Source: Algoriphagus sp. (GTDB lineage Bacteria > Bacteroidota > Bacteroidia > Cytophagales > Cyclobacteriaceae). From it: a stretch of DNA of 64,000 nucleotides. The position numbers and the translations under genes are program-made. The stretch spans positions 1 through 64,000 of the forward strand of contig JAGXQZ010000027.1 in assembly GCA_018336015.1 (NCBI GenBank). Direction: 5' to 3'. Below the pieces are notes generated by a model that searched no databases, had not been told where the DNA came from, and saw nothing but the letters and a program-made list of their open reading frames with translations. Shown here piece after piece: positions 3,311-46,370 of the stretch (position 1 is its first letter; the number at the start of each line of letters is the position of its first letter).

Positions 3311-3314
3311 CGCC

Positions 3315-4823: not shown

Positions 4824-4824
4824 G

Positions 4825-7800
4825 TTAGCGTTTGGTTAGAAATGCGTCCGAATTGAGAATGGCACTGGCCGTGACGGCGTTGGCAGCTATCAAACTGGGA
4901 TCGAGGGTGGAGGAAATCCGGTATTCCCCGGTCGTCAGCCAACCTTTGAGTTTGGCAGGATCGGTTTTGAATTTTTGATGCTCCTTTTCTCTCAAGTCCA
5001 GCAGGATTTGGAGTTCTTTTTCGAGGGGTTTTCTCCCGGTGAGTTTTCGGAAGGCCGTGACCACCCCCTGACGAGGATCGGAAGAACGAGACATCTGCTC
5101 TCCGAGTACTTTGGAGGCTTCCACAAAGGTGGGATCATTGAGCAAAGCCAAAGCTTGTAAGGGCGTGTTGGTTTCCTGTCGCTTGCTCACCGATACGCTG
5201 TGGTCCGGCGCATCAAAGATTGCCATCGTGGGGTGGTGCACCGATCGCTTCCATACGGTGTAGAGGCTTCGGCGGTAGAGATTTTTGCCTGTGTCTTGGG
5301 GGTAGTGGGCTCCGTTGACTTTCCAAAGTCCCTCCGGCTGGTAAGGGAAGACACTTTTTCCTCCTACCTCCCGATTCAGCAAACCGGAAGCGGCCAGCGC
5401 TTGATCCCGGATCAATTCGGCGGGTAATCTGACTGAGGGACCACGGGCCAGGAGGATGTTATCCGAGTCTTTTTCCTCGAGTTCGGGGCGTTTTTTGGAA
5501 GCTTGCCGATAGGTAGCTGAGGTGACGATCAGGCGTTGCATGGCTTTGACATCCCATCCCAAGTCCTGAAATTCTACCGCTAGCCAGTCCAGCAGTTCGG
5601 GATGAGAGGGCAGCTGACCCTGATTGCCAAAATCCTCCGAGGTAACCACCAGTCCTTTTCCAAAGTAGCTTTGCCAGAATCGGTTGACCGTGACGCGAGC
5701 GGTCAGTGGGTGCTTTTTGTCAATCAGCCATTCGGCCAATCCGAGGCGGTTTTTGGGCAGGTTGTCCGGCATGGGAAGTACGCTTTCCGGAGTATTGGGA
5801 AATACTTCCTCCCCATGCTGACTGTATTCACCCCTGGTGAGAATATAGGTAGGTCTGGGTTGCGCCCGATCCTTCATGATCATTAGTTCAGGGATCACTT
5901 CCACAGAGTCTGAGTAGGCTTTTCGCTTGGCAATCACTGCGTTCATCGTCTCTCGATAGGCCTTGGAATGAGTATTCAGGTAAAGTTTTTTTAGCGAAGC
6001 CTTTTGCTCTGAGGTCAGTTGATCGGGACTTTGGGAAAGTATGACTTTGTATTCGTTAGGGTTGAAAATCTGTAAAATCTCCAAAGGAGAAAGTTCCTGA
6101 TTGTAGACGCTGACCTCATCCACCACGGCTTCTTTGAGGCCTTTTCCCCGCCACACGGCACCTACTTGAAGTCCGGGTTGCCCGCCTTTGAAGAGGATGT
6201 CTTTGTAGAGATTGTCGTGGGTGGTGACAGTGGATAGTTCTTTTCCATTGAGGAAAATTTTCAGTCCCTTGGCCTTGGACGAACCGTCATACGTCAAGGT
6301 CAAGTTGATCCACTGATCTCGGGGGATGTCCTGTTCGGTGAGTTTAGTGATGGCATTGTAGGGCGCGGTATGGGCCATTAAGAGCTCGAGGCGGTTATTT
6401 TTCAAGCTGAGGTGATAGCCCCGCCAATTGTAAAGCACTGCACCGGAACCTTTATGAAAAATGACACCATCCGTGAGGTTTTTAGGGATAGTAATCCATG
6501 TGCTGACTGAGAAGGGTTCACTTCTGGAGAATATCCCCACCTCGCCCAGATTGAGCCAGGCGTCTCCGTTGAGTCGGATGCCTTTTCCTCTTCTCCCATC
6601 CACATAGCTTGGCGTCTGATTTCTGACCTCGCTGCTTTCCATGCTGCCTTTTTGAGCGGGTTTGAGGGCGTTTTGGATGGAGCTTTGGTCAAAATGGAAA
6701 AAGGCCACCCGGCTTGCAGGAAATTCTAGATTCGCGTCTTTTTGATACCCTTTTCCTGTCATCCAAGCCTGAAAAGCTGCCTCTTCGGCCTTGGCTGTTT
6801 GTGCAAGCTGGGCTTCCTGTTTTTCTTTTTCCCCTAACAGGAAAGAAAGGAGTTGGTCCTTTTTCTCATCCGTGAGTAGCATGGTTGGGGCAGGCGTGGC
6901 ATCGTCCCAAGAGATCTGCCCGGCCTCGTCTACTTGATTGAAAAAGCTGCTGAGTTCAAAGAAGTTTTTCTGAGAAATCGGGTCGTATTTGTGGTCATGG
7001 CAACGCGCACAGCCCAATGTGAGGGCCATAAAGGCCTGTCCCATCGTGCTCGTGCGATCCACCACATACTCCACCCGAAACTCCTCCTCGACGATGCCTC
7101 CCTCCATATTTTGAGGATGGATGCGGTTGAAAGCCGTGGCGATCAGTTGGTCCTTTGTAGGATTGGGCAGCAAGTCTCCGGCGAGCTGATCTCTGATAAA
7201 TTGGTCGTAGGGAAGGTTCTTGTTGAATGCCCGAATCACCCAATCCCGGTAAGGAGAAGCGTCTCGGAAGCGATCCACCGTATAGCCATGCGTATCGGCA
7301 TAGCGGGCCACGTCCATCCAGTGGAGGGCCATTTTTTCTCCATAGTGCACGGAGTTGAGCAATCTGTCCACCTGTTTTTCATAGGCATTTGGGGACTTAT
7401 CGGCCAGAAAATCATCCATTTCTGCTTCACTAGGAGGTAATCCGATGAGGTCAAGGCTTAGTCTTCGGAGCAGCGTTTCTTTGTCAGCTTCGGGTGAGGG
7501 AGAGATGCCTTCCGATTCCAATTTGCTCAGCACAAACTGGTCGATGGGGTTTTTGGGCCAGGTTTTTTCTTTGACTTTTGGTAGCTCGGGTTTTTCGGGC
7601 GTGATAAAGGCCCAGTGCTTTTTGTACTCGGCGCCGTCTTCGATCCATTTGATCAAAATGGCTTTTTCTCTTGGGCTGAGGGTAAGGTTAGATTCTTTGG
7701 AAGGCATTTGGTATTCCGGATCCTCAGAAATAATCCGGTGAAAAAGCTCGCTGTTTCGTAAGCTTCCGGGTTTGATGGCCACTTTTCCGGGGGAATCTTT

Positions 7801-8034
7801 AAGCGAGGCAAAGGCAAACTCAGCCGTGTGAAGGCTCAATCCTGCCTTTTGCGCAGCAAGATCAGGGCCGTGACAAGCGAAGCATTTGTCCGAGAGGATA
7901 GGCTTGACATGGATGTTAAAATCCAATGCTTCCGGCAATTCCTCATAAGCTATCTGAACATCTTCCGGAAGTTCGGGACTGCAGGAGGCGAGTATAAAAA
8001 CAAGAAAAAGGAGGGGAAGAAATCTCAAAATCAT
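4825..8034 (-). CDS. PSD1 and Planctomycete cytochrome C domain lipoprotein (DUF1549/LamG/DUF1553)
   Basis: This 1069-residue protein is a predicted lipoprotein (lipobox ILASC, Cys18). Domains in order are: PSCyt1 with haem motif CFACH at 51-55; PSCyt2/DUF1549 at about 155-360, with a second CARCH motif near 345; a LamG/concanavalin-type domain at about 450-660 ([29 protein letters not shown]); and PSD1/DUF1553 at about 740-1010 ([29 protein letters not shown]). It is the first gene of the three-gene operon. The family is linked to carbohydrate-rich environments, but its chemistry is not settled. Two haem sites imply electron transfer at the cell surface or in the periplasm. Confidence 0.9.
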
Positions 8035-33566: not shown

Positions 33567-34955
33567 ATGACTGAAGATTTATTTCCGGAGTTTGACGCAG
33601 CTTCCAAATCTGATTGGATAGCTCAAGCTTCAAAGGAAATCAAAGGAAGAGATGTTAGTGCAACCTTGAGTTCTAAGCTTTGGGATACGCTTGTATTGAA
33701 ACCGTTTTACACGCAGGAAGACTTGAGTAGCCCTATTGTTCAGCAGCGTTTTCACTCACCATCTGAAACGGTAGGCTTTCCTCCCAGGAGATGGCAAAAC
33801 CTGGTCAGCGTGCTACCTGGAGATACCAATGCTCAAATTTTGAATGCGTTGGAAAACGGAGCCGAAGGACTCGTTTTGCACCTCAATGGATTTGAAGATT
33901 TATCAGAACTTTTGGAAGGGGTCTTACCTCAATACATTTCGATTTTTGTATTGCCTAAGGGCAATCCTGTCGTTGCTCTAAAAACATTTTTGGAGTGGGC
34001 AGATGCGACAAGTGCATCTGCTGATTCAATAAGTGGAGGGATGCTTTGGACACCTTCTGATCTGAGTTTTGACCAGAATGAATCGTTTGGGCTAGGGACC
34101 GAAATCCTCGCTGAACTCCTAGAAATGAGTGGTCCTTATCCAAGTTTTGCACCATTTTGTATCAAAACCTCCCGATATACGGAATCTGGAGGCAATCCGA
34201 TCGAGGCACTTGGCTTAGGTTTGGGAGAGTTGATCGAGTTGATTGATTCTATGGATATAGACCCTAACGTGATTTTTTCAAAGATCTTTTTGGAAGCTTC
34301 AGTGGGGGAAAACCACTTTGGAGAAATTGTCCGGCTGAAAGCATTCCGAATGGCAATTTCACAACTTGCAAGCCTGTATGGCGTCGAACTGAAGGAAGAA
34401 GTTGTGTCGCTTTTTTGTAAAACTGCGCAATGGTCCAAGTCTCTTTTGGACCCCAATACCAACCTAATCCGACAAACCTATGAGGCGATGTCAGCTGTAC
34501 TCGGTGGAGCAAATTGGCTTTGGGTACAGCCGCTACAAGAAGAAGTTTGTTCCGAAATGGAGAGAAGAATTGCAAGAAATGTATCCTCTATTCTAAGGGA
34601 AGAAGCTTATCTGGACAAAGTCATGGACCCTGGGGCAGGAGCCTATTTCTTGGAAAATTTGAAAGAAGAAATCCTTCACAATTTAAAGGCGCAGCTCTCC
34701 AAAATAGAAGCTTTGGGCGGATGGTCAAAGGCTTTTCAAAAAGGGGAAATTCATGCTTCGATCAGGCAACAGCGTGAAAAAATTCTGAATGAAGTGATTC
34801 AAAATCAGGTAACAAAGATCGGTGCAAACAAATATCCCCCACCGTCCACATCCTCTACAGCATTCGTGTGGGAGCCTTTTGAAGAAAAACTTCATGAACT
34901 CAATCCTATCCGTGCGACCTATTTGCTCGAACTTCAAATCCTAGCTGAATCATGA
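33567..34955 (+). CDS. mutA: Methylmalonyl-CoA mutase small subunit
   Basis: This 462-residue protein is the non-catalytic (beta) subunit of the heterodimeric adenosylcobalamin-dependent mutase that interconverts succinyl-CoA and (R)-methylmalonyl-CoA. It opens with [20 protein letters not shown], has [20 protein letters not shown], and ends without an intact cobalamin-binding DxHxxG domain. It is shorter than the roughly 620-residue MutA of actinobacteria, as is common in Bacteroidota. It overlaps mutB by 4 bases (ATGA), so the subunits are translationally coupled. Confidence 0.93.
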
Positions 34956-37069
34956 GACCTGATCTGAGTAAATGGACCACAGCAAGCAAGGCTTCTGAGC
35001 CCAATTCCACATCAGTTTGGGAGGCCCCTGAGCAAATTAGCATCCCGGATTTTTTTGATCCCGAAGCGATCAATTCGCTCAAGCAACTCCGTTTTTCTGC
35101 GGGGATCCCGCCGTTTCTCCGTGGGCCTTATGCATCCATGTATGTGCAGCGGCCTTGGACCATCCGTCAGTATGCAGGCTTTTCCACGGCCGAAGAATCG
35201 AATGCATTTTACCGTAGAAACCTGGCTGCAGGGCAAAAAGGGCTTTCGGTAGCTTTTGATTTGGCTACGCATCGTGGGTATGACTCTGATCACCCCCGAG
35301 TCCAAGGCGACGTGGGCAAAGCCGGTGTAGCGATCGATACCGTGGAGGACATGAAAATCCTTTTCGATCAGATACCTCTAGACGACATGTCCGTCTCCAT
35401 GACGATGAATGGAGCTGTCATTCCGGTTTTGGCATTTTACATCGTCGCAGCAGAGGAGCAGGGAGTAAAACCTGAGCAGCTCAGCGGCACGATTCAAAAT
35501 GACATTCTGAAGGAATTTATGGTGCGGAATACCTACATCTATCCGCCCCAGCCTAGCATGCGGATCATTGGGGATATTTTTGAGTTTACTTCGAAGCACA
35601 TGCCCAAATTCAACTCGATTTCCATCTCCGGTTACCACATGCAGGAGGCCGGAGCAACGGCGGATTTGGAATTGGCTTACACCTTAGCGGATGGATTGGA
35701 GTACCTGAGAACTGGGATAAAAGCCGGGCTTGATATCGATGATTTTGCACCGAGGTTGTCCTTTTTCTGGGCGATTGGGATGAACTACTTCATGGAAATC
35801 GCCAAGATGCGGGCCGGCCGATTGCTTTGGTCCAAGATCGTCAAGCAATTCAATCCCAAGGATTCCAAATCACTCGCTTTGCGTACGCACTGTCAGACTT
35901 CCGGTTGGTCCTTGACGGAGCAAGATCCATTCAACAACGTGACCCGAACCGCCGTCGAAGCACTCGGGGCAGCCATGGGCCATACTCAGTCTCTCCACAC
36001 CAATTCCCTTGATGAAGCGATCGCTTTGCCTACAGATTTCTCGGCTCGAATTGCCAGAAATACCCAGCTGGTTTTGCAAGAAGAAACCAGAATCACCCAA
36101 GTGGTGGATCCTTGGGGAGGTTCTTACTATGTCGAGTACTTGACGGATCAGCTAGCGCAAAGAGCTTGGTCACTGATTCAGGAAGTAGAGGAAATGGGCG
36201 GCATGGCCAAAGCCATCGAAGCCGGACTTCCCAAACTTAGAATCGAAGAGGCGGCAGCCAAAAAGCAAGCACGAATCGATAGTGGCAAAGACGTCATCGT
36301 GGGAGTCAACCGCTATCAAGTGGATGAGGCATCCCAAATCGAGGTGAGAGATGTCGATAATCAGGCCGTGAAACTTGCTCAGATCGCCAGACTCAATCAG
36401 GTAAAAGCTTCCCGAAATCAGCAAGAGGTGGATTTTTGCTTAGAAAAAATTGCGCAGGCAGCCCAAGCCGGTACAGGTAATTTACTCGCTCTGGCTGTGG
36501 AGGCAGCTCGAAAAAGAGCTACTTTAGGAGAAATATCCGATGCGATGGAAAAAGCATTTGGCAGACACAAAGCCCAAACCAAGTCCATCTCAGGAGTCTA
36601 TGCTTCAGAAGTGAAAAATCAGGAATCATTCAAAAAAGCCCAGACACTTTCCGACAGATTTGCAGAAATGGAAGGTCGACGTCCGCGCATTTTGGTTGCC
36701 AAAATGGGGCAGGATGGGCACGACCGTGGGGCAAAAGTCATTGCTACCGGTTTTGCAGATTTGGGCTTTGATGTGGACATCGGGCCACTTTTTCAGACTC
36801 CTCAGGAAGTTGCCGAGCAAGCAGTTGAAAATGATGTCCATATTGTAGGCGCATCCTCACTTGCAGCTGGCCACAAAACCTTGATTCCTCAATTGATCCA
36901 AGCGCTTAAAGAACTCGGCCGTCCCGATATTATGGTGGTGGCAGGAGGGGTGATTCCGGCTAAGGATTATGAGTTTTTGGAAAAATCCGGAGTGGCTGCG
37001 GTCTTCGGTCCGGGGACGGTACTGTCAGAGGCTGCGACCAAGATTTTGGAAAAGTTGATGGCCGAATAA
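34952..37069 (+). CDS. mutB: Methylmalonyl-CoA mutase large (catalytic) subunit
   Basis: This 705-residue subunit has an N-terminal TIM barrel with [40 protein letters not shown] and [18 protein letters not shown], and a C-terminal cobalamin-binding domain from about residue 570 ([20 protein letters not shown]). The cobalt-ligand histidine is in DGHDRG. Reaction: (R)-methylmalonyl-CoA to succinyl-CoA by radical rearrangement, linking propionyl-CoA to the TCA cycle. Co-expressed with the small subunit and assisted by MeaB encoded upstream. A strong terminator follows. Confidence 0.97.
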
Positions 37070-37119: not shown

Positions 37120-37767
37120 TCAATCAATCTTCACTAGCCTAACGGAAAGGCCATTAAAAGGACTGCTGAGTGCTTTTTCGAAAGCGAATTTGTTTTCAGC
37201 CAGGTTTCGATTAATCACGAGCCCTTCTTCTTCTTGAGTGATACTCCACCAATAACCCGAAAATCCCAAGCCATCATAATATCCATCTTCGTCAATCATC
37301 CCAAGAGGATATCCCTCAAAACCGCTTTCATTGGTTCCGTTGTTTTCCACCCAACCCTCGGCGCTCTTGAGTTTGGCGGTAGCAGCGGCGGGTCCGCCTA
37401 GGGCCTCAGCCAAAATATTCCAGTCCTCATCAGTGGGTACTCTCCAGCCATCCGGAGCGATTCCCCGCTCATCTGAGATTGCCAAGTAGTTGTAAAGCTT
37501 TCCGAAAAACTGCCCATTTTCCTCATCGAAGTCAATGTCCATTCTCGCAGGCATGAAAAACACGCCTCCCAAAGCCCATTCCTCTTCATCGTAAGCAGCA
37601 GGAATAGTATCTCCGTTTCGGAAGGTGATCACATTCAGGTTTTCGGCCATCCAAGTTTGATTACCGATTTTAACGGTTTTGTAGGTACGGCCTTCGTGGT
37701 CGGTAACTTGGCTTTGCGCAAGAAAGGGAAGAAGAAATAGGGCAAGAAAAGTAGCTTTTCGCATCAT
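37120..37767 (-). CDS. FISUMP-domain secreted protein
   Basis: This protein of about 215 residues has a signal peptide (MRKATFLALFLLPFLAQSQ) and one Fibrobacter-succinogenes-major-paralogous (FISUMP) domain: VTDHEGRTYKTVKIGNQTWM, AENLNV, GWRVPTDEDWNILAEALGG, FSGYWWS. The fold is FGE-sulfatase/C-type-lectin related, and its role in Bacteroidota surface biology is unknown. An upstream TTG would extend it, but a TAnnTTTG promoter element covers that codon, so I start at the ATG at 37767 (37764 also possible). Confidence 0.85.
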   Translation of the reverse strand: MMRKATFLALFLLPFLAQSQVTDHEGRTYKTVKIGNQTWMAENLNVITFRNGDTIPAAYDEEEWALGGVFFMPARMDIDFDEENGQFFGKLYNYLAISDERGIAPDGWRVPTDEDWNILAEALGGPAAATAKLKSAEGWVENNGTNESGFEGYPLGMIDEDGYYDGLGFSGYWWSITQEEEGLVINRNLAENKFAFEKALSSPFNGLSVRLVKID

Positions 37768-37782
37768 GAGCTGGATTTTTAC

Positions 37783-37790
37783 CAAAAGTA
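37783..37790 (-). promoter_or_regulatory. Candidate -7 element for the FISUMP gene
   Basis: On the minus strand this reads TACTTTTG, matching TAnnTTTG, 15 bases before the chosen ATG. It decides the start against the upstream TTG at 37785, which falls inside the element. Confidence 0.45.
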
Positions 37791-37854: not shown

Positions 37855-38160
37855 TCAAATCCTCATTTCCAAAAGCGCATAGCTCAGACTTTTTCCATGC
37901 GCGTCCATCGCCAAAGAGGTGGTGACCCCACTAGCCAAGGCGCTTTCGCAGGTGAAAAGCAAAGCCTTCAGCTCAGGGATTTCATGTCGGATGACACTTC
38001 CTTTGAGTTGATGGGCGAGGTGTTGTTTGACTTTATCGGCAGTGACTTTTTCTACCAAAAGTTCATAGTTCTTTTCCTCCAAAGGAAAAAGGGAAAGCAC
38101 CAACGTGTTTCCTTTGTCTCCGGCACGGCTGTGGGCGATATCGGCAAGTTTCTGACTCAT
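37855..38160 (-). CDS. Small AtuA-related protein
   Basis: This 101-residue protein matches the short domain that accompanies AtuA/DUF1446 proteins, sometimes fused to their C-terminus. It starts MSQKLADIAHSRAGDKGNT (the conserved HSRAGDKGN motif) and ends near DAHGKSLSYALLEM. Its first codons overlap the last of the AtuA gene by 4 bases, so the two are probably one functional unit. It is the last gene of the five-gene operon. Confidence 0.85.
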   Translation of the reverse strand: MSQKLADIAHSRAGDKGNTLVLSLFPLEEKNYELLVEKVTADKVKQHLAHQLKGSVIRHEIPELKALLFTCESALASGVTTSLAMDAHGKSLSYALLEMRI

Positions 38161-39479
38161 GATTCAAAGACTTGAATGGTAGGGTGAATTTGGGTTCGAT
38201 CCATCAAGATAGAAACTACACCGATGATTTCATTCAGGAATTTTCTCGCTCCTCCTCCACCGGCAGGCCCGTTGGTGTAGAGGGCTTCCACTTCTTCTCC
38301 CACGAGTTGGGTGAGGGCCTGGTTCTTGGATTTTCCGGCAATTCGAAGTCTAACTTCATATGGAGCAGAACCTTGGGAAAGGCTTTCCCCATGCAGGGAA
38401 CTCAGTCCGATGTAATCCACCCGAAACTCGTCAAATAAATTCCCGATCCGCTTTTGGATGATTTCTCCGGCAAGTTTTGCCCGCTCTACGGCATGAGCTC
38501 CCGCGTAGGAAATCTCCCCTTCTCCGATCCAGCCGGCTTGATAGCCCACGCTCACCTTGAGGGTTTCGGGTTTGGGTTTGCCGGTTCCTCCGGTGACTTT
38601 CAATTTATTTGGTCCGATTTCTTCCAAACGCACACTTCGAAAATCTGCCACCGTATCAGGCGTGAAGTAATTTCCCGGATCGAGGACTTCATACAGTAAT
38701 TGCTCCTTGGCTGTCTGAGTGTTGATCAATCCGCCGGTTCCGTCCACTTTGGAAATAATTCCGCCCCCGTCCCGACTGACTTCTAGGATTGGATGCCCAA
38801 GGATGTGCATGTTCGGAACAGGCTTAGACACTGGGTCTGCGAAATATCCTCCGGTGATCTGTCCTGCGCACTCCATCAAGTGTCCAAGCACAGTTCCTTT
38901 GCCCATCAGGTCTGAATTTTCCTTATCCCAACCCAATTCGTGTACCATGGGTGCCAAAAAAAGCGAAGGATCTGCCACTCTTCCCGTCAGGATAATTTGC
39001 GCATCGGTGGCCAATGCCGGAAGAATGGCCTCCACGCCCAGGTAGGCATTGGCTGAAACTAGTTTGCCGTAGGAGTTCAGGGGTTGATTGCCTTCTAGGC
39101 TGAGCTCTTCTCCGCTGAGTTGCTCGAAGACATCATCCCCCAAAACGACCGCAATCTTTACCTTTAGCCCGAGTTTTTTGGCGATTTCCAGGATTTTTTT
39201 GGCTCCGGCGATGGGATTTGCTGCCCCCATATTGGTGATGAGGCGGGTTTTATGCTTGAGTAATAGTGGAAGCAAACCTTCGATTCTCCGTTCCAAGAGA
39301 ACATCATATCCGGCATTGGGGTCTAGTTGTTTGCGCTTTTGTGCCAAAGCAATAGTTCGCTCGGCGAGGCATTCCAAGACCAGGTAATCCAGATTTCCCT
39401 TTTCCGTCAGGATCAAAGCAGGCTCCAATCGGTCTCCTGAAAAGCCGGCCCCGCAACCGATTCTTATTTTTTCCGCCAT
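38157..39479 (-). CDS. AtuA family (DUF1446) protein
   Basis: This 440-residue protein opens IRIGCGAGFSGDRLEPALIL, with the conserved LVLECLAERTI, TRLITNMGAANP and HILGHPILEVSRDGGG segments of AtuA. In Pseudomonas, atuA is essential for acyclic terpene (citronellol) use, but its reaction is not known; relatives occur with acyl-CoA carboxylases. Here no carboxylase or acyl-CoA dehydrogenase is adjacent. Partners are a CitMHS permease (1 base upstream) and two esterases, which suggests a short-chain acid or terpenoid acid pathway. Confidence 0.9.
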   Translation of the reverse strand: MAEKIRIGCGAGFSGDRLEPALILTEKGNLDYLVLECLAERTIALAQKRKQLDPNAGYDVLLERRIEGLLPLLLKHKTRLITNMGAANPIAGAKKILEIAKKLGLKVKIAVVLGDDVFEQLSGEELSLEGNQPLNSYGKLVSANAYLGVEAILPALATDAQIILTGRVADPSLFLAPMVHELGWDKENSDLMGKGTVLGHLMECAGQITGGYFADPVSKPVPNMHILGHPILEVSRDGGGIISKVDGTGGLINTQTAKEQLLYEVLDPGNYFTPDTVADFRSVRLEEIGPNKLKVTGGTGKPKPETLKVSVGYQAGWIGEGEISYAGAHAVERAKLAGEIIQKRIGNLFDEFRVDYIGLSSLHGESLSQGSAPYEVRLRIAGKSKNQALTQLVGEEVEALYTNGPAGGGGARKFLNEIIGVVSILMDRTQIHPTIQVFES

Positions 39480-39480
39480 A

Positions 39481-40767
39481 CTAAATCGAGATCACTCCAA
39501 GTAAAATAGAAACCAAAAGCATCACCAAAGTGACCAAAAACGCCAAGGGAATGGTCTTTTTTTGATGATCACCCAGCTCGACTCCAGCCAATCCAACCAA
39601 TAAAAAAGTGGAGCCAGTCAGTGGACTTACCGGAAATCCGGTGGTCATTTGTCCCAAAATCGCAGCTTGTCCGACCTCTAAGCCACTTGCACCAAAGGTG
39701 GTGGCGGTAGTAGATAGCAGAGGCAAAATACCGAAATAGAAGGAATCGGGATCAAAAAGCATACTTGCCGGCATAGCCACCAATCCTGTCAAAAGTGGGA
39801 GTTGTCGGCCCAATTGCTCAGGCAATAAGGTTTGAACGGTGGAAGCCATAGACTCCATCATACCGCTTCCTTTGAGAATACCGGTGAAGCATCCTGCTGC
39901 AAAGAGGATACTTGCCATCAGCATAGCTTCTTTGGCGTGAGCATCGATTCGATTTTTTTGCTCTGAGACTTTTGGGAAATTAATCAATAAAGCCAGCGCA
40001 AATGCTACCATAAATACTACGTAAGGTGGCGCCCAAGAAAGAATGATGCTGGTAATAGCTACTAGAATCAAAATAATATTCATCCAAAACAGCCTCGGAC
40101 GATGCAAGGGGTTTTCTGCTGTAGATTGGCTAGATACAGCGGATTGATTGAGGTCACCAAGTCTGTTCTTTTCACTTTTTCCAAGAAAAAAAGCTATCAC
40201 AAAAACACTTACCAAACCGGTCATCAGCGGAAGAACCATGGGGTTGAACAGTTCCGTGACGGGCACATTCAATGCTGTAGCAGCGCGTATAGTCGGCCCT
40301 CCCCAAGGAACCATATTCATAGTCCCTGCCGACAGCGCTACGATGCATGCCAGGGTAATCCGCTTCATACCCATTTGATCATAGATCGGTGCCAATGCAG
40401 GGATGACTACCAAAAATGTCACCGCACCCGACCCATCCAGATGAATCAACATAGCCAAAACCGCCGTGGCTAAGGCGATTTTGATCGGGTCATTTCCAGC
40501 TATTTTTAGCAACCTGGAGATGATGGGTTGGAAGGTGCCAGCATCCAAAAGGATTCCAAAAAAGAGGATGGCGAAGACAAACATGACGCCTGTGGGAGCG
40601 ATGGCTTGCAATCCTTCACCGATCATCGCAGGTAGTTCATTTGTTTTTCCAGCCAATATTCCTGTAAGAATAGGAACAAGCGTCAAAGCAATCACAGGAG
40701 ATGCTTTTTTGGTGATGACCAAAAAGAGCAAGAGTAAAATTGTAAGTAGTCCTAGTAAGGCAAGCAT
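39481..40767 (-). CDS. CitMHS family transporter (citrate-type carboxylate:cation symporter)
   Basis: This 428-residue protein has about 11 membrane helices. The CitMHS features are LLGLLTILLLLFLVITKKAS at the start, MLIHLDGSGAVTFLVVIPAL, SAGTMNMVPWGGPTIRAATA and SMLFDPDSFYFGILPLLST. Known members import citrate complexed with Mg or Ca. The substrate here may be another carboxylic acid released by the neighbouring esterases. It lies 3 bases after the esterase gene and 1 base before the AtuA gene. Confidence 0.88.
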   Translation of the reverse strand: MLALLGLLTILLLLFLVITKKASPVIALTLVPILTGILAGKTNELPAMIGEGLQAIAPTGVMFVFAILFFGILLDAGTFQPIISRLLKIAGNDPIKIALATAVLAMLIHLDGSGAVTFLVVIPALAPIYDQMGMKRITLACIVALSAGTMNMVPWGGPTIRAATALNVPVTELFNPMVLPLMTGLVSVFVIAFFLGKSEKNRLGDLNQSAVSSQSTAENPLHRPRLFWMNIILILVAITSIILSWAPPYVVFMVAFALALLINFPKVSEQKNRIDAHAKEAMLMASILFAAGCFTGILKGSGMMESMASTVQTLLPEQLGRQLPLLTGLVAMPASMLFDPDSFYFGILPLLSTTATTFGASGLEVGQAAILGQMTTGFPVSPLTGSTFLLVGLAGVELGDHQKKTIPLAFLVTLVMLLVSILLGVISI

Positions 40768-40770
40768 GGG

Positions 40771-42312
40771 TTATCGGTTCAGGCTTTCCATAAATTTCAT
40801 TTGCTCCCAGTTGGGCATGGCTCTGGTTTTCAGGTTGTATCCCAGCTCAATGACCAGTGGGTTTTCAGGATCAAAAATCGGCCATTCGGGAAGACCGGGT
40901 CCGTTGGGATTTCCGGTTTTCACAAAGTTGACCCAGTAGCTGGACATGTTTTTTTCCAAGTCATAATCCACCTGCTCAAAGGGTCTGTTCCAATTGCGGA
41001 GGGTATGCAGTGCATAGCTGAATTCGGCCGAATGGAAAGCTCCATAATTGGGTTCTCCTGGAGGTACTCGGGTGAAATAGTACACATAAGCATCATTTTG
41101 ACCCTTTTCAGTCTGCATCTTTGCCCAGGTGTAATTTTGGAACCCAAAAGCTAAAACACCAATAGTGTTCAGCGTTTCTTCCAATTCAACTTCATTGCCT
41201 GCTGGGAAAAGTTGCAAGTATTCCCCGGCTCGTCCTCCGTATTGTTTTTTGGCGTTGGCTTTGAATTCGGCAGGAGTGGTGGCAGGATTTCCGGAGACCC
41301 GATCATGGGCATTCCAACCAGTCAGAAGAGGGACATCCGAAAAGGACCCATCTTCGAATGCTTGTCTTACACTGGGCAAGACTTTGCCATCTACTACGGG
41401 ACCAAATCTCCCCGGGATTTTCAGCAGGCTGTCCGCCGGGAGCTTTCTAAGTTCTGCCAGTGAGATTCCGAGCGTGTCGGTGAGTTGTTTTCCTCGTTCT
41501 TCAGCGCCCTGGAGGCCTGAGACCAAACCCGTACCCCGATTAAACATTCCGCCGCTTTGGGCGATGGCTTTGTGGAAAAGTCCTTTTGCTTTGGGAGAGA
41601 CGACCAGAGCGTTGACGCTGAAAGCACCTGCAGATTGGCCTGCAATGGTAACATTGTCTGGATCGCCACCAAAAGCTGTGATGTTCTTTTTCACCCACTC
41701 CAAACCGGCAATCTGATCCAAGAGGCCATAATTTCCGGAAGTTTGATCGGGATTTTCAGCGCTGAGTTCCGGATGAGCCAAGAAACCCAATATCCCCACT
41801 CGGTAATTGAGTGCGACGACTACGATGCCTTTTTTTGCCAGATCTTCTCCGTCGTAAAGTGGGACAGTGTTTCCACCCGAACTGAATCCTCCTCCATAAA
41901 TCCAGACCATCACAGGAAGTTTTTCATCCGATTTTTCTGCAGCAGTCCAAATGTTGAGGTAAAGACAGTCCTCCGAAATCGGTTCTTTTGGGATCAGAAA
42001 TTCCTCCGACCAGGCAAAAAACGGCACGGGAGGATTTTGCATCGGGGCAGCGGGATTTTCGGTGCAGACTTTGGTGCCCTCCCAAGGCTGTACGGGTTGT
42101 GGGGCTTTCCATCGCAAGTCACCTACCGGAGGAGCGGCAAAAGGTATTCCTTTAAAAATTTTGACCTGTCCGCTGGAGTCGGTTTTTCCTGAAATGAGAC
42201 CGCCTTCCACAGCCACGGACTGAATGGAGAGGTTGGTTTGTTTTTCACTTTTTCCGCAGGAGAAAAAAAGAAAGCCCATCGCAGCGATGAGCAGAAACGG
42301 GCTTTTGAGCAT
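40771..42312 (-). CDS. Carboxylesterase lipoprotein (type B, alpha/beta hydrolase)
   Basis: This 513-residue lipoprotein (FLFFSC, Cys19) has the type-B carboxylesterase signatures: EDCLYLNIWTAAEK, the oxyanion loop VMVWIYGGGFSSGG, and the nucleophile Ser227 in TIAGQSAGAFSVN. The acid and His are expected later (a His lies in AFHSAEFSYAL). It hydrolyses carboxylic esters outside the cytoplasmic membrane; substrate unknown. It follows the Nudix regulator by 3 bases and precedes the carboxylate transporter by 3 bases, so it should free an acid for import. Confidence 0.9.
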   Translation of the reverse strand: MLKSPFLLIAAMGFLFFSCGKSEKQTNLSIQSVAVEGGLISGKTDSSGQVKIFKGIPFAAPPVGDLRWKAPQPVQPWEGTKVCTENPAAPMQNPPVPFFAWSEEFLIPKEPISEDCLYLNIWTAAEKSDEKLPVMVWIYGGGFSSGGNTVPLYDGEDLAKKGIVVVALNYRVGILGFLAHPELSAENPDQTSGNYGLLDQIAGLEWVKKNITAFGGDPDNVTIAGQSAGAFSVNALVVSPKAKGLFHKAIAQSGGMFNRGTGLVSGLQGAEERGKQLTDTLGISLAELRKLPADSLLKIPGRFGPVVDGKVLPSVRQAFEDGSFSDVPLLTGWNAHDRVSGNPATTPAEFKANAKKQYGGRAGEYLQLFPAGNEVELEETLNTIGVLAFGFQNYTWAKMQTEKGQNDAYVYYFTRVPPGEPNYGAFHSAEFSYALHTLRNWNRPFEQVDYDLEKNMSSYWVNFVKTGNPNGPGLPEWPIFDPENPLVIELGYNLKTRAMPNWEQMKFMESLNR

Positions 42313-42315
42313 GGG

Positions 42316-43020
42316 TTAATTGGTTTTGAAGCTGTAGAGGTAGGGAGCTTTGTGGCTTTTGCCGGTGAAAAGCTTTTCATGACGGTCAAGGATGTCGAGG
42401 CTCAGCATTTTTCGCTGGAAACTGGTGCGACGGAGTTTTTGTCCTAAAATCGCTTCATATACAGATTGAAGTTCATTCATGGTAAACCGTTCCGGAAGGA
42501 GATTGCCTCCTATTAGCTTGCGGTCGAGATTTTCACGCAGGGTTTGCAGTGCTTTTTGGACGATTTTTCTGTGGTCAAGTATCAAATCAGGCAAATGCTC
42601 AATGTCATACCAGGTAATGGAATCCGAAAGAGAATCTGGTGTCAATGTGACTTTTTCGTGGTCAATCAATGCATAGTAGGCGATTGAAAAAAAGCGGTCT
42701 AGCATCCAATAATTATCCGGTACAGCATATCCGTTGGCTTCTAGGATGGTTTTCATCACCTCGGGCTGATATCTGCCAATATCCCCAAAGGTGTGGAACT
42801 GCTCCAGGTAGATTTCTTTAAGGCCGGTACGCTCAAAAAGCCCTCTTTTGACAGCATCCTCTAGGTTTTCAGTTCGTTCTACAAACCCCCCTGGTAGTGC
42901 GTGCCACCCCGTATCGTGGTATTCCATCAATAAGATTTTCAGTTTTCCCTTAGAAAAACCGAAGACTACTGAGTCGTATGCGATATGTGGGATGTATTGA
43001 GAGACTTCTGGAAGGGGCAT
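42316..43020 (-). CDS. NrtR/AraR-type Nudix transcription regulator, catalytic box degraded
   Basis: This 234-residue protein has an N-terminal Nudix fold (HIAYDSVVFGFSKGKLKILL) and a C-terminal winged helix with NLLPERFTMNELQSVYEAIL and LRRTSFQRKML, the layout of NrtR and Bacteroidota AraR regulators. In the Nudix box the invariant pattern REUxEExGU reads R59-GLFERTGL: two of the three glutamates are replaced (Gly60, Arg64), so catalysis is unlikely and the domain should act as a ligand sensor. It is first in the operon. I start at the ATG at 43020 because the upstream open frame runs through the inverted repeat; an ATG-type start near 43077 is possible. Confidence 0.85.
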   Translation of the reverse strand: MPLPEVSQYIPHIAYDSVVFGFSKGKLKILLMEYHDTGWHALPGGFVERTENLEDAVKRGLFERTGLKEIYLEQFHTFGDIGRYQPEVMKTILEANGYAVPDNYWMLDRFFSIAYYALIDHEKVTLTPDSLSDSITWYDIEHLPDLILDHRKIVQKALQTLRENLDRKLIGGNLLPERFTMNELQSVYEAILGQKLRRTSFQRKMLSLDILDRHEKLFTGKSHKAPYLYSFKTN

Positions 43021-43075
43021 AATGGAAGGTAATTCTGGTCTAAGTAAATAGGATTTTTCCGTAGAAGCAATTAAC

Positions 43076-43096
43076 ATTGTCTCACACTGAAACAAT
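43076..43096. promoter_or_regulatory. 21-bp inverted repeat, likely operator of the Nudix regulator
   Basis: ATTGTnTCA, 3 bases, then TGAnACAAT: nine-base arms with one mismatch. It sits between the divergent regulator operon (55 bases away) and the secreted esterase (22 bases before its ATG). A TAACATTG sequence at 43072-43079, one base off the -7 pattern, overlaps it. The length fits operators of Nudix-type regulators. Confidence 0.6.
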
Positions 43097-43118
43097 AGAT
43101 CTATACGAATCGGAATTT

Positions 43119-44753
43119 ATGAAAGTGTTTTTAATTGTCCTGTCTTTACTATCCTGCTGTACTTCAATGGTGTATGCCCAAAGCAATAACTTCATGGCTG
43201 TGCAAACTACCGTCAAGAACGGTGTCATAGAGGGGAACTACAATGTGACCAACGGGATTTCTACCTATTTTGGGATACCCTTTGCTAAGCCACCCGTTGG
43301 GGACTTACGTTGGAAAGCTCCGGTGCCTGCTGATAAGTGGTCAGGAATAAAAATTACCAAGAAATTCGGACCAAGACCTGTTCAGGGTCTGGTTTTTGGC
43401 GATATGAACTCCTGGTCAGACGGAGTTTCGGAGGATTGTCTGACTTTGAATGTCTGGACTCCGGCAAAAAGGAATTCCAAAGATTTACCGGTCCTGGTCT
43501 ATTTCTATGGAGGTGGATTTGTGGCAGGAGACGCATCTGAACCGAGGTACAACGGGGAATCCATGGCCAAAGAAGGGGTGGTAGTTGTGACTGTAAATTA
43601 CCGCTTGGGGATTTTCGGATTTTTAGCTCATCCTGAACTCAGCGCTGAGGCCCCCTACAAAGCCTCCGGTAATTACGGTTTACTCGATCAGGCCTTGGCC
43701 TTGCAGTGGGTGAAAGACAATATTGCCGCTTTTGGTGGTAATCCCAATCAGGTAACCATTGCAGGTGAATCTGCAGGGTCGATTTCCGTTTCTTATCAGA
43801 TGGCTTCTCCATTGTCTAAAAACCTGATTCATGGAGCAATCGGGGAAAGTGGTGCAGGGATCAACCCGACTTTAGCGCCAGTATACCTTAAAGAAGCTGA
43901 ACAGACGGGGAAAGAATTTCTGGATAAAGCAGGTGTAAAATCCATCGCTGAAGCTAGAAAAATGTCTGCTAAAGATGTTTTTGAAATCTATCAGGAATCC
44001 GGACGATTTGGTTTTCCTGTGGTGATTGACGGATATCTTCTCCCAAAAACCCTTCCGGAAATTTTCAGGGCTGGCGAACAGGCTCAAGTTCCTTTATTGC
44101 TTGGCTGGAACTCCGCTGAAATCCCCGGAGCGGCATTTATGCAAGGTAAACCGTACACCAAGGAAGCATTCATAGAAAAGGTGATGGAAGCCTATCCGGT
44201 TCAGGCAGCCGAAGTGTTGGCATTGTATGCGCACGAGACCCCCGAGCAAGTAGAATATTCAGCTACCGATTTGGCATCGGACCGATTTATCGTGTATAGC
44301 ACGTGGAAGTGGTTTGACCTTCATCGAAATCACAGTAAACAGCCAGTGTACCGGTATTTGTTCAGCAAACTATCCCCTCCTTTGGTGGATAAAAACCTGA
44401 CAGCGGGTCTTGCAGGTGGGACTGTGAGAAGTGAAAATCCAGGTCCTGCACCGAAGCAGATCGGTGCCCGACATGCCGCTGAGATTGAATATGCTATGGG
44501 CAATCTGCACTTGGTGAAAGAATTTGCTTGGACTCCGGAGGATATGAAAGCATCCAAGACGATGTTTGACTACTTTACCAACTTTGTGAAAACAGGAAAC
44601 CCTAATGGTGGCGAGAATCCAGCGTGGTCAGCAGCCCGGTCAGGTGATCAAAATCCTCCCGTGATGGTGATCGATACAGAGTCGAAGGAGGTGAAAGCTG
44701 CCCATGACGCCCGTCAACTATTTCATGACAAGTTTTATAAAAACGATAGATAA
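43119..44753 (+). CDS. Secreted carboxylesterase (type B)
   Basis: This 544-residue protein has a signal peptide (MKVFLIVLSLLSCCTSMVYA, cut before QSNN). EDCLTLNVWTPAKRNS, VLVYFYGGGFVAGD and nucleophile Ser218 in TIAGESAGSISVS mark type-B carboxylesterase. It is a distant paralogue of the operon esterase across the divergent promoter but is exported without a clear lipobox. The ATG at 43119 is preferred over an upstream TTG that falls inside the operator. Substrate unknown; probably acts with its neighbour on related esters. Confidence 0.9.
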   Translation: MKVFLIVLSLLSCCTSMVYAQSNNFMAVQTTVKNGVIEGNYNVTNGISTYFGIPFAKPPVGDLRWKAPVPADKWSGIKITKKFGPRPVQGLVFGDMNSWSDGVSEDCLTLNVWTPAKRNSKDLPVLVYFYGGGFVAGDASEPRYNGESMAKEGVVVVTVNYRLGIFGFLAHPELSAEAPYKASGNYGLLDQALALQWVKDNIAAFGGNPNQVTIAGESAGSISVSYQMASPLSKNLIHGAIGESGAGINPTLAPVYLKEAEQTGKEFLDKAGVKSIAEARKMSAKDVFEIYQESGRFGFPVVIDGYLLPKTLPEIFRAGEQAQVPLLLGWNSAEIPGAAFMQGKPYTKEAFIEKVMEAYPVQAAEVLALYAHETPEQVEYSATDLASDRFIVYSTWKWFDLHRNHSKQPVYRYLFSKLSPPLVDKNLTAGLAGGTVRSENPGPAPKQIGARHAAEIEYAMGNLHLVKEFAWTPEDMKASKTMFDYFTNFVKTGNPNGGENPAWSAARSGDQNPPVMVIDTESKEVKAAHDARQLFHDKFYKNDR

Positions 44754-44819: not shown

Positions 44820-44841
44820 AAAGGCCGGATACCCGGCCTTT
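44820..44841 (+). terminator. Terminator at the end of the secreted esterase
   Basis: AAAGGCCGG-ATAC-CCGGCCTTT is a perfect 9-bp GC-rich stem. It touches the stop codon of the converging DUF2490 gene. The T tract after it is short, so it may act as a structural barrier for both directions. Confidence 0.65.
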
Positions 44842-45593
44842 CATCGTTTAGCAGGGGTGAGTTGATGCTTGAGGACTGACCGAAAAATGTGCTGCTCTAG
44901 AAATCCTCCAGTTGATTTGGCTTGGTACCAATTGACATAGCCTAGGTCTAAGCTGATTTTTGGAGAGATATCCATGGATAGATCCGCCGAACTTCGGTTT
45001 TGATCGAAGGTGATCCTTTCCATTCTCCCGCCTGCCATAGCCATTACTTCGTTTGCTAGTTTGAGCCTAAGAATTTTGGTCTCTGCGAATTTTGCAAGAG
45101 AGACAATCGCCTGAAGCCGGTAGCGGAACCTAGCCGCTGAATAATGAAACCCTTCCTGCAATTCAGTCACTGGAAAGTTAGTGTTTTGGAAAAACCGAAA
45201 TTCTCCTCTCCATCTGTTTTCAATAGCTACCGAACCCAAGGATGATCTTAGGTTGACTTCCCCATGAGGACGAAGTTCAGGTTGGGTAAAGGAAAGATGG
45301 GTGTTGGAGCCTGGTTTGTGAAAAAGGAAAAGACTGCCACCAAAGCCCACGTTCATTTTTTGAGTTAGCTTTTTATGGAATCGCGTTCGGATCAGAAACT
45401 GACTTTGCTCGAGTGGATTGACCAGATGCCGTTCCATTATTTCGGTTTCTAGGAACCACCTGGGACCAAGGTCTGCTGAAAACGTATATCCATACCAAAG
45501 CAGCTGCTTGGTTTGGACTTGGCCAAGGGCGGAAATAGCCGAATTCCAACCTAGGAAGGTGATGAGGAGAAGGAGAGGGAACTTGGATTTCAT
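44841..45593 (-). CDS. DUF2490 outer-membrane-type protein, copy 1
   Basis: This 250-residue protein has a signal peptide (MKSKFPLLLLITFLGWNSAI). DUF2490 features are LLWYGYTFSADLGPRWFLET, EIMERHLVNPLEQSQFLIRT and a long series of amphipathic strands ending LGYVNWYQAKSTGGF. It is predicted to be a small outer-membrane beta barrel of unknown function. The next gene upstream encodes a clear paralogue with the same ERHL-P-QSQFL-RTRFH core, so this is a tandem duplication. Start chosen at the ATG before the signal peptide (45593) rather than 5 codons earlier. Confidence 0.82.
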   Translation of the reverse strand: MKSKFPLLLLITFLGWNSAISALGQVQTKQLLWYGYTFSADLGPRWFLETEIMERHLVNPLEQSQFLIRTRFHKKLTQKMNVGFGGSLFLFHKPGSNTHLSFTQPELRPHGEVNLRSSLGSVAIENRWRGEFRFFQNTNFPVTELQEGFHYSAARFRYRLQAIVSLAKFAETKILRLKLANEVMAMAGGRMERITFDQNRSSADLSMDISPKISLDLGYVNWYQAKSTGGFLEQHIFRSVLKHQLTPAKR

Positions 45594-45647
45594 GGATTTG
45601 TGACCCATGATAACTATTCCATCCCATAAAGAATGGTGACAAAAGTC

Positions 45648-46370
45648 TCACTTCCGCTTTTGAAGCTGATGCCTGAGGTTGATTTTTAGGATATCCTGTC
45701 GGAGAAATTCACCGGGTCTCACCTGCTGATGTAAAAAGATGTAACCCAATTCCAATTGAAGATAAGGTGAGATGGAATAGACCAAATCTCCGATCAGTCT
45801 ATTTTGATCATACACCACCTCACCGGTAGTGCCTCCTGACATGGCCATAAATTCATTGGAGAGTTTGGCCTGAAGGGATTTTTTTAAAGGAATGTTTATT
45901 TGAAAACGGTAGCGATACCTGAATCCACGAAAGAAAAATCCTTCTTCCAACTCTTCCTTGGGGGTTAATCGTTGGTAAAATCTTGCCTCTCCCCTGATTC
46001 GATGTTCCAAGCCAATACTGGAGAATTTGGTTTTGAAAGTAGCGTCGACGTGGGGCCTAGCTTCCGGCCAATTGAAATCATCGTTGACTGATGGACGCTC
46101 TCGATGATGAAAAAAGGTACTGAATCCTACAGAGGTATCCCAATTTTCCGACCAGATTCGGTGAAACCGCGTTCGGACTAGAAATTGACTCTGCTGAAAA
46201 GGTCTGATCAGGTGGCGCTCCTGGATTTCGGTTACGTTATACCATTTTTCGGACAGCGGTACGGTCAAAAAATATCCGTACCACATGACTTCTTGCCTTG
46301 AATTTTGTGCAAAAGAGTCGAGCGGTACGGATAGCGTTAAGCAAAGAAAAAGGATAAACAGTGGCCTCAT
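45648..46370 (-). CDS. DUF2490 outer-membrane-type protein, copy 2
   Basis: This 240-residue protein has a signal peptide (MRPLFILFLCLTLSVPLDSF, then AQN). The same DUF2490 core as its downstream neighbour is visible: VMWYGYFLTVPLSEKWYNVT, EIQERHLIRPFQQSQFLVRT, and a late LELGYIFLHQQVRPGEF. Function unknown, probably a beta barrel. It is 54 bases upstream of copy 1 on the same strand and likely co-transcribed with it. Confidence 0.82.
   Translation of the reverse strand: MRPLFILFLCLTLSVPLDSFAQNSRQEVMWYGYFLTVPLSEKWYNVTEIQERHLIRPFQQSQFLVRTRFHRIWSENWDTSVGFSTFFHHRERPSVNDDFNWPEARPHVDATFKTKFSSIGLEHRIRGEARFYQRLTPKEELEEGFFFRGFRYRYRFQINIPLKKSLQAKLSNEFMAMSGGTTGEVVYDQNRLIGDLVYSISPYLQLELGYIFLHQQVRPGEFLRQDILKINLRHQLQKRK

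What the first reader, a model, noticed from the sequence alone, without database searches (positions are those of the whole stretch)
37855..44753. Candidate new catabolic system: Nudix regulator, two exported esterases, CitMHS importer and AtuA pair
Five genes (regulator, lipoprotein esterase, carboxylate importer, AtuA, small AtuA-like) are packed with gaps of 1-3 bases or a 4-base overlap, and a second secreted esterase is divergent across a shared operator. Together they make a full path: ester cleavage outside, acid import, then AtuA-dependent processing inside. No geranyl-CoA carboxylase or acyl-CoA dehydrogenase is present, so this is not the classic terpene pathway, and the AtuA reaction itself is unknown.
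Basis: partly seen in the sequence, partly recalled or inferred. Interest (0 to 1): 0.7.

Follow-up and report, generated by a model that had tools for sequence, protein, structure and literature searches.

The report
Import-and-cleave cassette for hydroxy-dicarboxylic acids
A small gene set that probably cuts an acid off an ester outside the cell, imports it and splits it into acetate and a keto acid; the import-and-split core is shared by very distant microbes and may be the unannotated route by which bacteria such as bee-gut symbionts eat 3-hydroxy-3-methylglutarate.

Summary
The six genes are real, tightly packed and conserved. The core is a trio: CitMHS symporter, AtuA, small AtuA partner. 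It recurs in 15 of 15 family genomes with the same AtuA type; the AtuA/partner pair is in 80 of 80 sampled loci from Bacteroidota to a haloarchaeon (59 with CitMHS). AtuA and partner are not orphan terpene proteins: their predicted folds match chains A and B of one solved complex, citramalate lyase 9evf (Z 31.7 and 10.4). So the pair is most likely a two-subunit lyase releasing acetate from a branched hydroxy-dicarboxylate. In 8 of 80 loci acetoacetate CoA-transferase genes sit near the trio (0.5-0.75 expected), 7 with a thiolase, pointing to 3-hydroxy-3-methylglutarate (HMG). Snodgrassella communis carries this full set; S. alvi is reported to consume HMG and form acetate by steps 'not annotated'. 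The window enzyme's substrate is inferred, not shown; citramalate and citrate remain open.

The parts
37855..38160 (-). small AtuA partner (AtuA_ferredoxin domain), predicted lyase subunit B
   Evidence: PF23544 E 4.8e-28; present in 80 of 80 loci beside atuA; model's best PDB match 9evf_B, Z 10.4
38157..39479 (-). AtuA, predicted lyase subunit A
   Evidence: PF07287 E 9.9e-144; profile hits PDB 9erq_A E 1.3e-7; model's best PDB match 9evf_A, Z 31.7 over 400 residues
39481..40767 (-). CitMHS-type symporter, predicted importer of the acid
   Evidence: TIGR00784 421 bits, cut-off 260; found in 59 of 80 loci, in the DNA held around atuA
40771..42312 (-). carboxylesterase type B with lipoprotein-like N-terminus
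   Evidence: PF00135 E 4.4e-108; GQSAG nucleophile motif and lipobox-like FFSC read by eye from the translation
42316..43020 (-). Nudix-type transcription regulator with C-terminal winged helix
   Evidence: PF21906 NrtR_WHD E 6.8e-19, PF00293 E 1.2e-9 (scanned with the longer start); nearest solved relative AraR 5bs6 E 1.5e-33
43076..43096 (.). palindromic operator ATTGTCTCACACTGAAACAAT
   Evidence: same palindrome between regulator and esterase in six other loci (L023, L058, L059, L060, L068, L070; in L059 the genes are further apart with one copy near each) and upstream of other esterases in this and related genomes
43119..44753 (+). second carboxylesterase type B with Sec-like signal
   Evidence: PF00135 E 3.8e-113; divergent from the regulator in eleven other loci (L023, L058, L059, L060, L068, L070, L192, L198, L201, L203, L206)

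Best explanation
The window holds an ester-fed acid catabolic unit. Exported carboxylesterases release a branched hydroxy-dicarboxylic acid from esters outside the cell (inferred). The CitMHS symporter takes the acid up (inferred from family and gene pairing). AtuA and its small partner form a two-subunit lyase of the citramalate-lyase type that splits the acid into acetate and a 3-oxo or 2-oxo acid (fold and subunit composition shown by comparison; activity inferred). The most likely substrate is 3-hydroxy-3-methylglutarate, giving acetate and acetoacetate, which the cell's 3-oxoacid CoA-transferase and a thiolase turn into acetyl-CoA (inferred from neighbours in other genomes). Whether the lyase takes the free acid or its CoA ester (acetate plus acetoacetyl-CoA) is open. 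The Nudix regulator binds the palindrome at 43076-43096 and controls this unit together with further esterases elsewhere in the genome (inferred from site conservation).
For: Fold: AtuA model (pLDDT 92.8) best PDB match 9evf_A, E 1.8e-25, Z 31.7, next Z 9.1; small-subunit model (pLDDT 84.5) best match 9evf_B, Z 10.4, next 7.6. Pairing: importer and partner beside AtuA in 15 of 15 other family genomes with this AtuA type; partner in 80 of 80 and CitMHS in 59 of 80 named loci. Product: two-subunit 3-oxoacid CoA-transferase genes in 8 of 80 loci, 7 of them directly downstream of the trio and with a thiolase in the DNA held (in L091 about 3 kb further on, in L118 cut by the contig end); 0.5 to 0.75 expected; at least 6 changes of this label on the AtuA tree. 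Physiology: S. alvi depletes 3-hydroxy-3-methylglutarate, forms acetate from it, and the first two steps 'have not been annotated' (PMC11343714, passages); Snodgrassella communis L084 carries trio plus CoA-transferase plus thiolase, and AtuA is in 11 of 14 genomes of that genus. Own genome has a 3-oxoacid CoA-transferase pair. Esters: 11 of 15 Bacteroidota loci have an esterase near; operator sites with 2 or fewer mismatches precede esterases in 3 of 3 cases here and 17 of 27 in seven relatives.
Against: The only solved relative is named for citramalate and shares 16% identity with the window's AtuA over the alignment, so the substrate cannot be read from it. No Bacteroidota locus has the CoA-transferase near the trio; 72 of 80 loci lack it in the DNA held. 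21 of 80 loci have no CitMHS in the DNA held, some being contig ends; TRAP, ABC or TTT transporter genes stand there in plasmid examples. In four of seven relatives (G026, G039, G043, G028) the trio carries no operator within 3 mismatches although esterases do. 8 of 27 sites lie at genes with no clear link. S. alvi wkB2 itself was not examined, 3 of 14 genus genomes lack the gene, and 3-hydroxy-3-methylglutarate did not support its growth alone. The ADP in 9evf is unexplained here.
Confidence: 0.52

Rival explanations
1. The pair is a citramalate lyase: the acid imported and cleaved is citramalate, giving pyruvate and acetate, both entering central metabolism without further dedicated genes.
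For: The best structural match of both subunits is named citramalate lyase, with pyruvate and ADP bound. A DUF1446 gene lies in the methylaspartate glutamate cluster of E. coli O157:H7 where the fate of citramalate was unclear (PMC4682846, passages), and an AtuA-family pair has the locus numbers next to methylaspartate ammonia-lyase in a Prevotella intermedia table (PMC10434189, passage). Needs no CoA-transferase, as in 72 of 80 loci. One Salipiger plasmid locus has CoA-transferase, MaoC and CoA ester lyase genes near AtuA.
Against: Identity to the solved enzyme is only 16%. No methylaspartate, mesaconase or itaconate gene names appear in the annotated plasmid loci with close AtuA relatives other than the Salipiger one; most neighbours in the 80 genome loci were not annotated. 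Acetoacetate-handling genes do not fit pyruvate as product.
Confidence: 0.2
2. The trio imports and cleaves citrate, a CoA-free citrate lyase giving oxaloacetate and acetate.
For: The transporter scores well above the cut-off of the citrate:proton symporter model; citrate has the same branched hydroxy-acid skeleton; S. alvi grows on citrate.
Against: Aerobic organisms with a TCA cycle need no lyase for citrate (general knowledge); CoA-transferase plus thiolase near the trio do not fit oxaloacetate; CitMHS substrate range is not settled by the family name.
Confidence: 0.1
3. The genes are a loose collection: AtuA and the importer form one unit and the esterases serve unrelated esters, such as acylated plant polysaccharides, under the same Nudix regulator.
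For: 63 of 65 trio or pair loci outside Bacteroidota have no esterase of the families sought; in four of seven relatives the operator marks esterases but not the trio; the operator also sits between a GH3 gene and a sugar-dehydrogenase-like gene in two relatives and before CBM48-esterases; the regulator resembles arabinose AraR.
Against: Esterases of three different Pfam families of the alpha/beta-hydrolase fold stand near the trio in different Bacteroidota (PF00135, PF00756, PF20091), in the window the esterase gene lies inside the tight run, and in Algoriphagus the operator lies before both.
Confidence: 0.15
4. Terpenoid ester catabolism, as the family name AtuA suggests.
For: Pfam name only.
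Against: [quoted passage not shown] the protein in that table is listed with 615, read here as residues, so longer than the split form. No terpene genes were found among the window genes scanned.
Confidence: 0.03

Closest known systems
Citramalate lyase CmlA/CmlB (PDB 9erq, 9evf)
   Same: Two subunits of 456 and 105 residues; both predicted models match the two chains of this complex better than any other PDB chain found.
   Different: 16-19% identity; partner belongs to PF23544 here, while a distant AtuA on a Klebsiella plasmid has a DUF4387 partner; gene neighbours and probably substrate differ. No paper on the enzyme was found in the library. 'CmlB' as name of the small chain is my extension of the depositors' 'cmlA'.
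AtuA of the acyclic terpene (Atu) pathway
   Same: Same Pfam family name; proposed reaction releases acetate from a 3-hydroxy-3-substituted glutaryl-CoA, chemically the same kind of cut as proposed here.
   Different: Longer single chain (615 in the table of PMC4847356, read as residues), CoA ester substrate, carboxylase and dehydrogenase partners.
CitMHS citrate:proton symporters (TIGR00784)
   Same: Full-length match above cut-off.
   Different: Genetically tied to a lyase; substrate not shown to be citrate.
NrtR/AraR Nudix regulators
   Same: Nudix domain plus winged helix.
   Different: Scores below the NrtR equivalog cut-off (97 of 400 bits); target genes appear to be esterases, not NAD or arabinose genes.
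AtuA-like lyases ThnQ/ThnS of anaerobic naphthalene degradation
   Same: Named AtuA-like lyase in a review table (PMC12016498, passage).
   Different: Part of a naphthalene ring-cleavage gene set; not compared by sequence here.
Fumonisin B1 esterase (PDB 8s6d)
   Same: Best solved relative of the lipoprotein esterase (E 6e-78); it cleaves tricarballylic ester bonds (recalled).
   Different: General type B carboxylesterase similarity; does not fix the substrate.

Membership tests
AtuA family (PF07287) | Full-length match over the curated cut-off | tested here: met
   480 bits, cut-off 22.8, positions 1-436 of 437
Citramalate lyase CmlAB | Subunit A fold | tested here: met
   Z 31.7, rmsd 4.1, 400 residues aligned to 9evf_A; profile E 1.3e-7 to 9erq_A
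Citramalate lyase CmlAB | Small subunit B with matching fold beside subunit A | tested here: met
   Z 10.4, rmsd 2.8, 96 residues aligned to 9evf_B, next chain Z 7.6
Citramalate lyase CmlAB | Cleaves citramalate to pyruvate and acetate | not testable with these tools
   needs enzyme assay
Citramalate lyase CmlAB | Methylaspartate/mesaconate gene neighbours | tested here: not met
   none among the window genes scanned (not every window gene was scanned) nor named in annotated plasmid loci with close relatives, Salipiger's CoA-type C5 gene set apart
Acyclic terpene (Atu) cluster | Geranyl-CoA carboxylase and citronellyl-CoA dehydrogenase genes alongside | tested here: not met
   not among the genes scanned between 33567 and 48990; genome-wide absence not tested
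CitMHS citrate symporter | TIGR00784 over cut-off | tested here: met
   421 bits, cut-off 260
NrtR ADPR-responsive repressor | NCBIfam NF050029 equivalog cut-off | tested here: not met
   97 bits, cut-off 400
3-hydroxy-3-methylglutarate catabolic set as proposed for Snodgrassella | Lyase product acetoacetate handled by neighbouring CoA-transferase and thiolase | tested here: inconclusive
   8 of 80 loci have the CoA-transferase, 7 of them also the thiolase, but no Bacteroidota; own genome has a CoA-transferase pair elsewhere

The most novel reading that the evidence does not exclude
CitMHS, AtuA and its small partner form a previously unrecognised uptake-and-cleavage cassette for 3-hydroxy-3-methylglutarate shared by Bacteroidota, Bacillota, Pseudomonadota, Acidobacteriota and a haloarchaeon; it supplies the missing first steps of this acid's use by bee-gut Snodgrassella, and in Cytophagales it has become the core of a Nudix-controlled regulon of exported esterases that harvests the acid from natural esters such as acylated plant glycosides.
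Probability: 0.4. Interest if true: 0.78.

Novelty: new variant of a known kind. Interest (0 to 1): 0.6.

Why it matters
The family is commonly annotated as 'acyclic terpene utilization' or DUF1446. If the reading holds, many genomes gain a correct function, a gap stated in print for a model gut symbiont (first two steps of 3-hydroxy-3-methylglutarate use) becomes directly testable, and a whole esterase regulon in Cytophagales gains a purpose.

Tried and rejected
Terpene pathway: disfavoured as above. Fumonisin/tricarballylate: the esterase's best solved relative suggests it, but tricarballylate has no hydroxyl group for a lyase to use (general knowledge), and the match is general.

DUF1446 relatives across the phylum: 144 of 395 genomes match at E <= 1e-80, but 138 of them are only 35-42% identical; two such loci looked at (L211, L212) have neighbours that look like housekeeping genes by eye, so they were not used for inference. 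The long AtuA forms of the own family lack CitMHS and partner in 4 of 4 loci inspected (L038-L041); a fifth, on a 3-kb contig, was not inspected.

Promoter and terminator scan: hits at or below shuffled level, not used. A Bacteroidota-type promoter word was at chance level.

Operator sites: 8 of 27 in relatives were not at esterases (L187, L193, L194, L199, L200, L207, L208, L210); L187 precedes a gene of unknown kind and a thiolase and was not counted as support.

Esterase counts used query proteins taken mostly from Bacteroidota loci and the window, so hydrolases of other phyla may be under-counted; five loci with amidase hits (L080, L086, L099, L123, L124) were left out of the esterase count.

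Papers: searches; none of the papers listed was seen to tie AtuA or DUF1446 to 3-hydroxy-3-methylglutarate, and no paper on the 9erq/9evf enzyme was found. Searches were swamped by unrelated words. The library holds open-licence papers only.

Full report
Observation. Five run on the minus strand with gaps of 3, 3 and 1 bases and a 4-base overlap; the sixth, an exported carboxylesterase, starts 98 bases away on the other strand. The regulator most likely starts at 43020, because longer starts run through a palindrome at 43076-43096.

Where it comes from. The nearest named relative is Algoriphagus lacus (AtuA 89% identical). Methylmalonyl-CoA mutase genes lie near the unit on the other strand in four other loci (L023, L025, L058, L059) and are not taken as part of it.

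Conservation. In the window's family, 21 of 148 genomes have AtuA at E <= 1e-20. Sixteen (window included) have the 440-residue type at 50% identity or more; all 15 others have CitMHS and the small partner beside it. Of these 15, 7 have a clear esterase near (PF00135 type in L023, L025, L028, L029; PF00756 type in L030, L032, L036). They span Bacteroidota, Bacillota, Pseudomonadota, Acidobacteriota and a haloarchaeon. Plasmid records show the trio in Spirosoma, Azospirillum, Haladaptatus, Mycetohabitans, Roseomonas, Sphingomonas and, in another order, Pseudomonas luteola; elsewhere TRAP, ABC or TTT transporter genes stand beside the pair. CitMHS itself seems to have been exchanged: the window's is 61% identical to one in a Tissierellia locus (AtuA 53%) but 44-46% to those of Emticicia (AtuA 67-68%).

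What the AtuA pair is. A profile of 43 split AtuA proteins (window plus 42 of the 80 loci) finds one convincing solved relative, 9erq_A, named citramalate lyase subunit A (E 1.3e-7; the next, 9qkx_A, E 0.015 without a significant stretch). A single-sequence search had given it only E 0.057. The predicted AtuA model (mean pLDDT 92.8) matches 9evf_A, 'Citramalate lyase - ADP - pyruvate complex', with Z 31.7 over 400 residues, against 9.1 for the next chain. The small partner's model (84.5) independently matches chain B of the same entry, Z 10.4 against 7.6 for the next, although sequence searches with it found nothing. The small protein has one cysteine, so 'ferredoxin' in its domain name refers to fold only. 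I conclude that the pair is a two-subunit lyase of that type. The activity itself is inferred. The role of ADP is unknown to me; it may mark a nucleotide or CoA site.

Which acid. In 8 of 80 loci a two-subunit 3-oxoacid (acetoacetate) CoA-transferase lies near the trio: in 7 directly downstream and with a thiolase in the DNA held (L084, L091, L094, L095, L096, L101, L118; in L091 the thiolase is about 3 kb further on, in L118 it is cut by the contig end); L078 has the transferase upstream, divergent, without thiolase (families checked for L084 and L096). From the density of such genes in those 8 genomes, 0.5 to 0.75 would be expected (P about 1e-6 or less; loci are not fully independent). The label needs at least 6 changes on the AtuA tree (quick tree, SH-aLRT only). 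The Azospirillum thermophilum plasmid shows CoA-transferase genes too. Acetoacetate plus acetate is what a lyase of this type would make from 3-hydroxy-3-methylglutarate. The terpene AtuA is proposed to make the same cut on 3-hydroxy-3-isohexenylglutaryl-CoA (PMC4847356, passage). None of the 15 Bacteroidota loci has the transferase near.

An independent physiological link. [quoted passage not shown] Depletion was by S. alvi and not Gilliamella. Snodgrassella communis L084 carries CitMHS, AtuA, partner, CoA-transferase and thiolase in a row. AtuA is in 11 of 14 genomes of that genus but in 7 of 44 genomes of the family of Zophobihabitans, Orbaceae, which is also Gilliamella's family (which of the 44 are Gilliamella is not known). 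Against: the acid did not support growth alone; it raised the growth rate on citrate 3.5-fold.

The ester end. Of 15 Bacteroidota loci among the 80, 11 have an esterase in the DNA held, against 2 of 65 others (Fisher P 9e-9). The query proteins came mostly from Bacteroidota, so the contrast is biased in their favour. The esterases belong to different families of the alpha/beta-hydrolase fold in different genera: PF00135, PF00756 and PF20091. Outside the phylum a 3-hydroxybutyrate oligomer hydrolase type stands beside the pair or trio in Microvirga, Pseudomonas luteola and Bradyrhizobium.

The regulon. The palindrome between regulator and esterase is conserved in L023, L058, L059, L060, L068 and L070. 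In the own genome only two other places match with 2 or fewer mismatches: one is 31 bases before a third carboxylesterase, the other just before two tandem esterases, the first of them CBM48-PF00756. With the two in the window, three of the four full-length PF00135 genes of the genome are thus in reach of a site. In seven relatives (two of the same genus, A. lacus and four of the family), 27 sites were found against 0 or 1 matches of the reversed pattern per genome. All 27 were inspected: 17 precede an esterase or the regulator/esterase pair, 2 lie between a GH3 gene and a ThuA/sugar-dehydrogenase-like gene, 8 have no clear link; many of the 17 are orthologues, in five groups (regulator/esterase, lipoprotein esterase, third carboxylesterase, CBM48 esterase, long PF00756 esterase). 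The trio's run carries a site in the Algoriphagus loci and lies downstream of the regulator/esterase site in L060, L068 and L070, but it has none in G026, G039, G043 or G028. So regulator and esterases may be an older pair to which the trio was joined in some lineages, or from which it was detached.

Natural esters of 3-hydroxy-3-methylglutarate exist, for example on bergamot flavonoid sugars (PMC9598738, abstract start in the listing). That Algoriphagus meets them is not shown.

Verdict. The unit is real and conserved; AtuA plus partner as a citramalate-lyase-type enzyme is well supported (about 0.85). 3-hydroxy-3-methylglutarate as its substrate in the window is the best single reading (about 0.5), with citramalate next. 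The kind of enzyme is known in outline; the cassette and its regulon appear undescribed in the papers that could be searched.

Noticed in passing
33567-37069 (+): Methylmalonyl-CoA mutase pair: the large subunit is conserved (83-93% in relatives) but the small one is short (462 aa), far below its model's cut-off (124 of 617 bits) and only 39-57% alike between close relatives, as if freed from constraint.
   Followed up: partly
44841-46370 (-): Two tandem DUF2490 proteins beside the second esterase.
   Followed up: no
37120-37785 (-): A FISUMP (Fib_succ_major) domain protein follows the AtuA run and is kept there in two relatives (L023, L058).
   Followed up: no
1979-8034 (-): Planctomycete-type cytochrome/PSD1 domain genes (PSCyt1, PSCyt2, DUF1553) in a stretch with higher G+C (up to 54%) than the rest of the window.
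   Followed up: no
L080, L086, L123, L124: In Rhizobiales loci an amidase-type gene follows the AtuA pair (family checked for L080), hinting at amides as a source of the acid.
   Followed up: no
L084, L119: AtuA of Snodgrassella (Betaproteobacteria) is 77% identical to that of the gammaproteobacterium Zophobihabitans, which suggests transfer, perhaps between insect-gut bacteria.
   Followed up: no
L186, L191: The same operator lies between a GH3 glycosidase gene and a ThuA/sugar-dehydrogenase/cytochrome fusion in two relatives of the same genus.
   Followed up: partly
L050 5530-7249: On Klebsiella plasmid pHNLC3 a distant AtuA with a DUF4387 partner sits with aldehyde dehydrogenases and a fumarate hydratase gene, not far from a fosA3 gene.
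   Followed up: no
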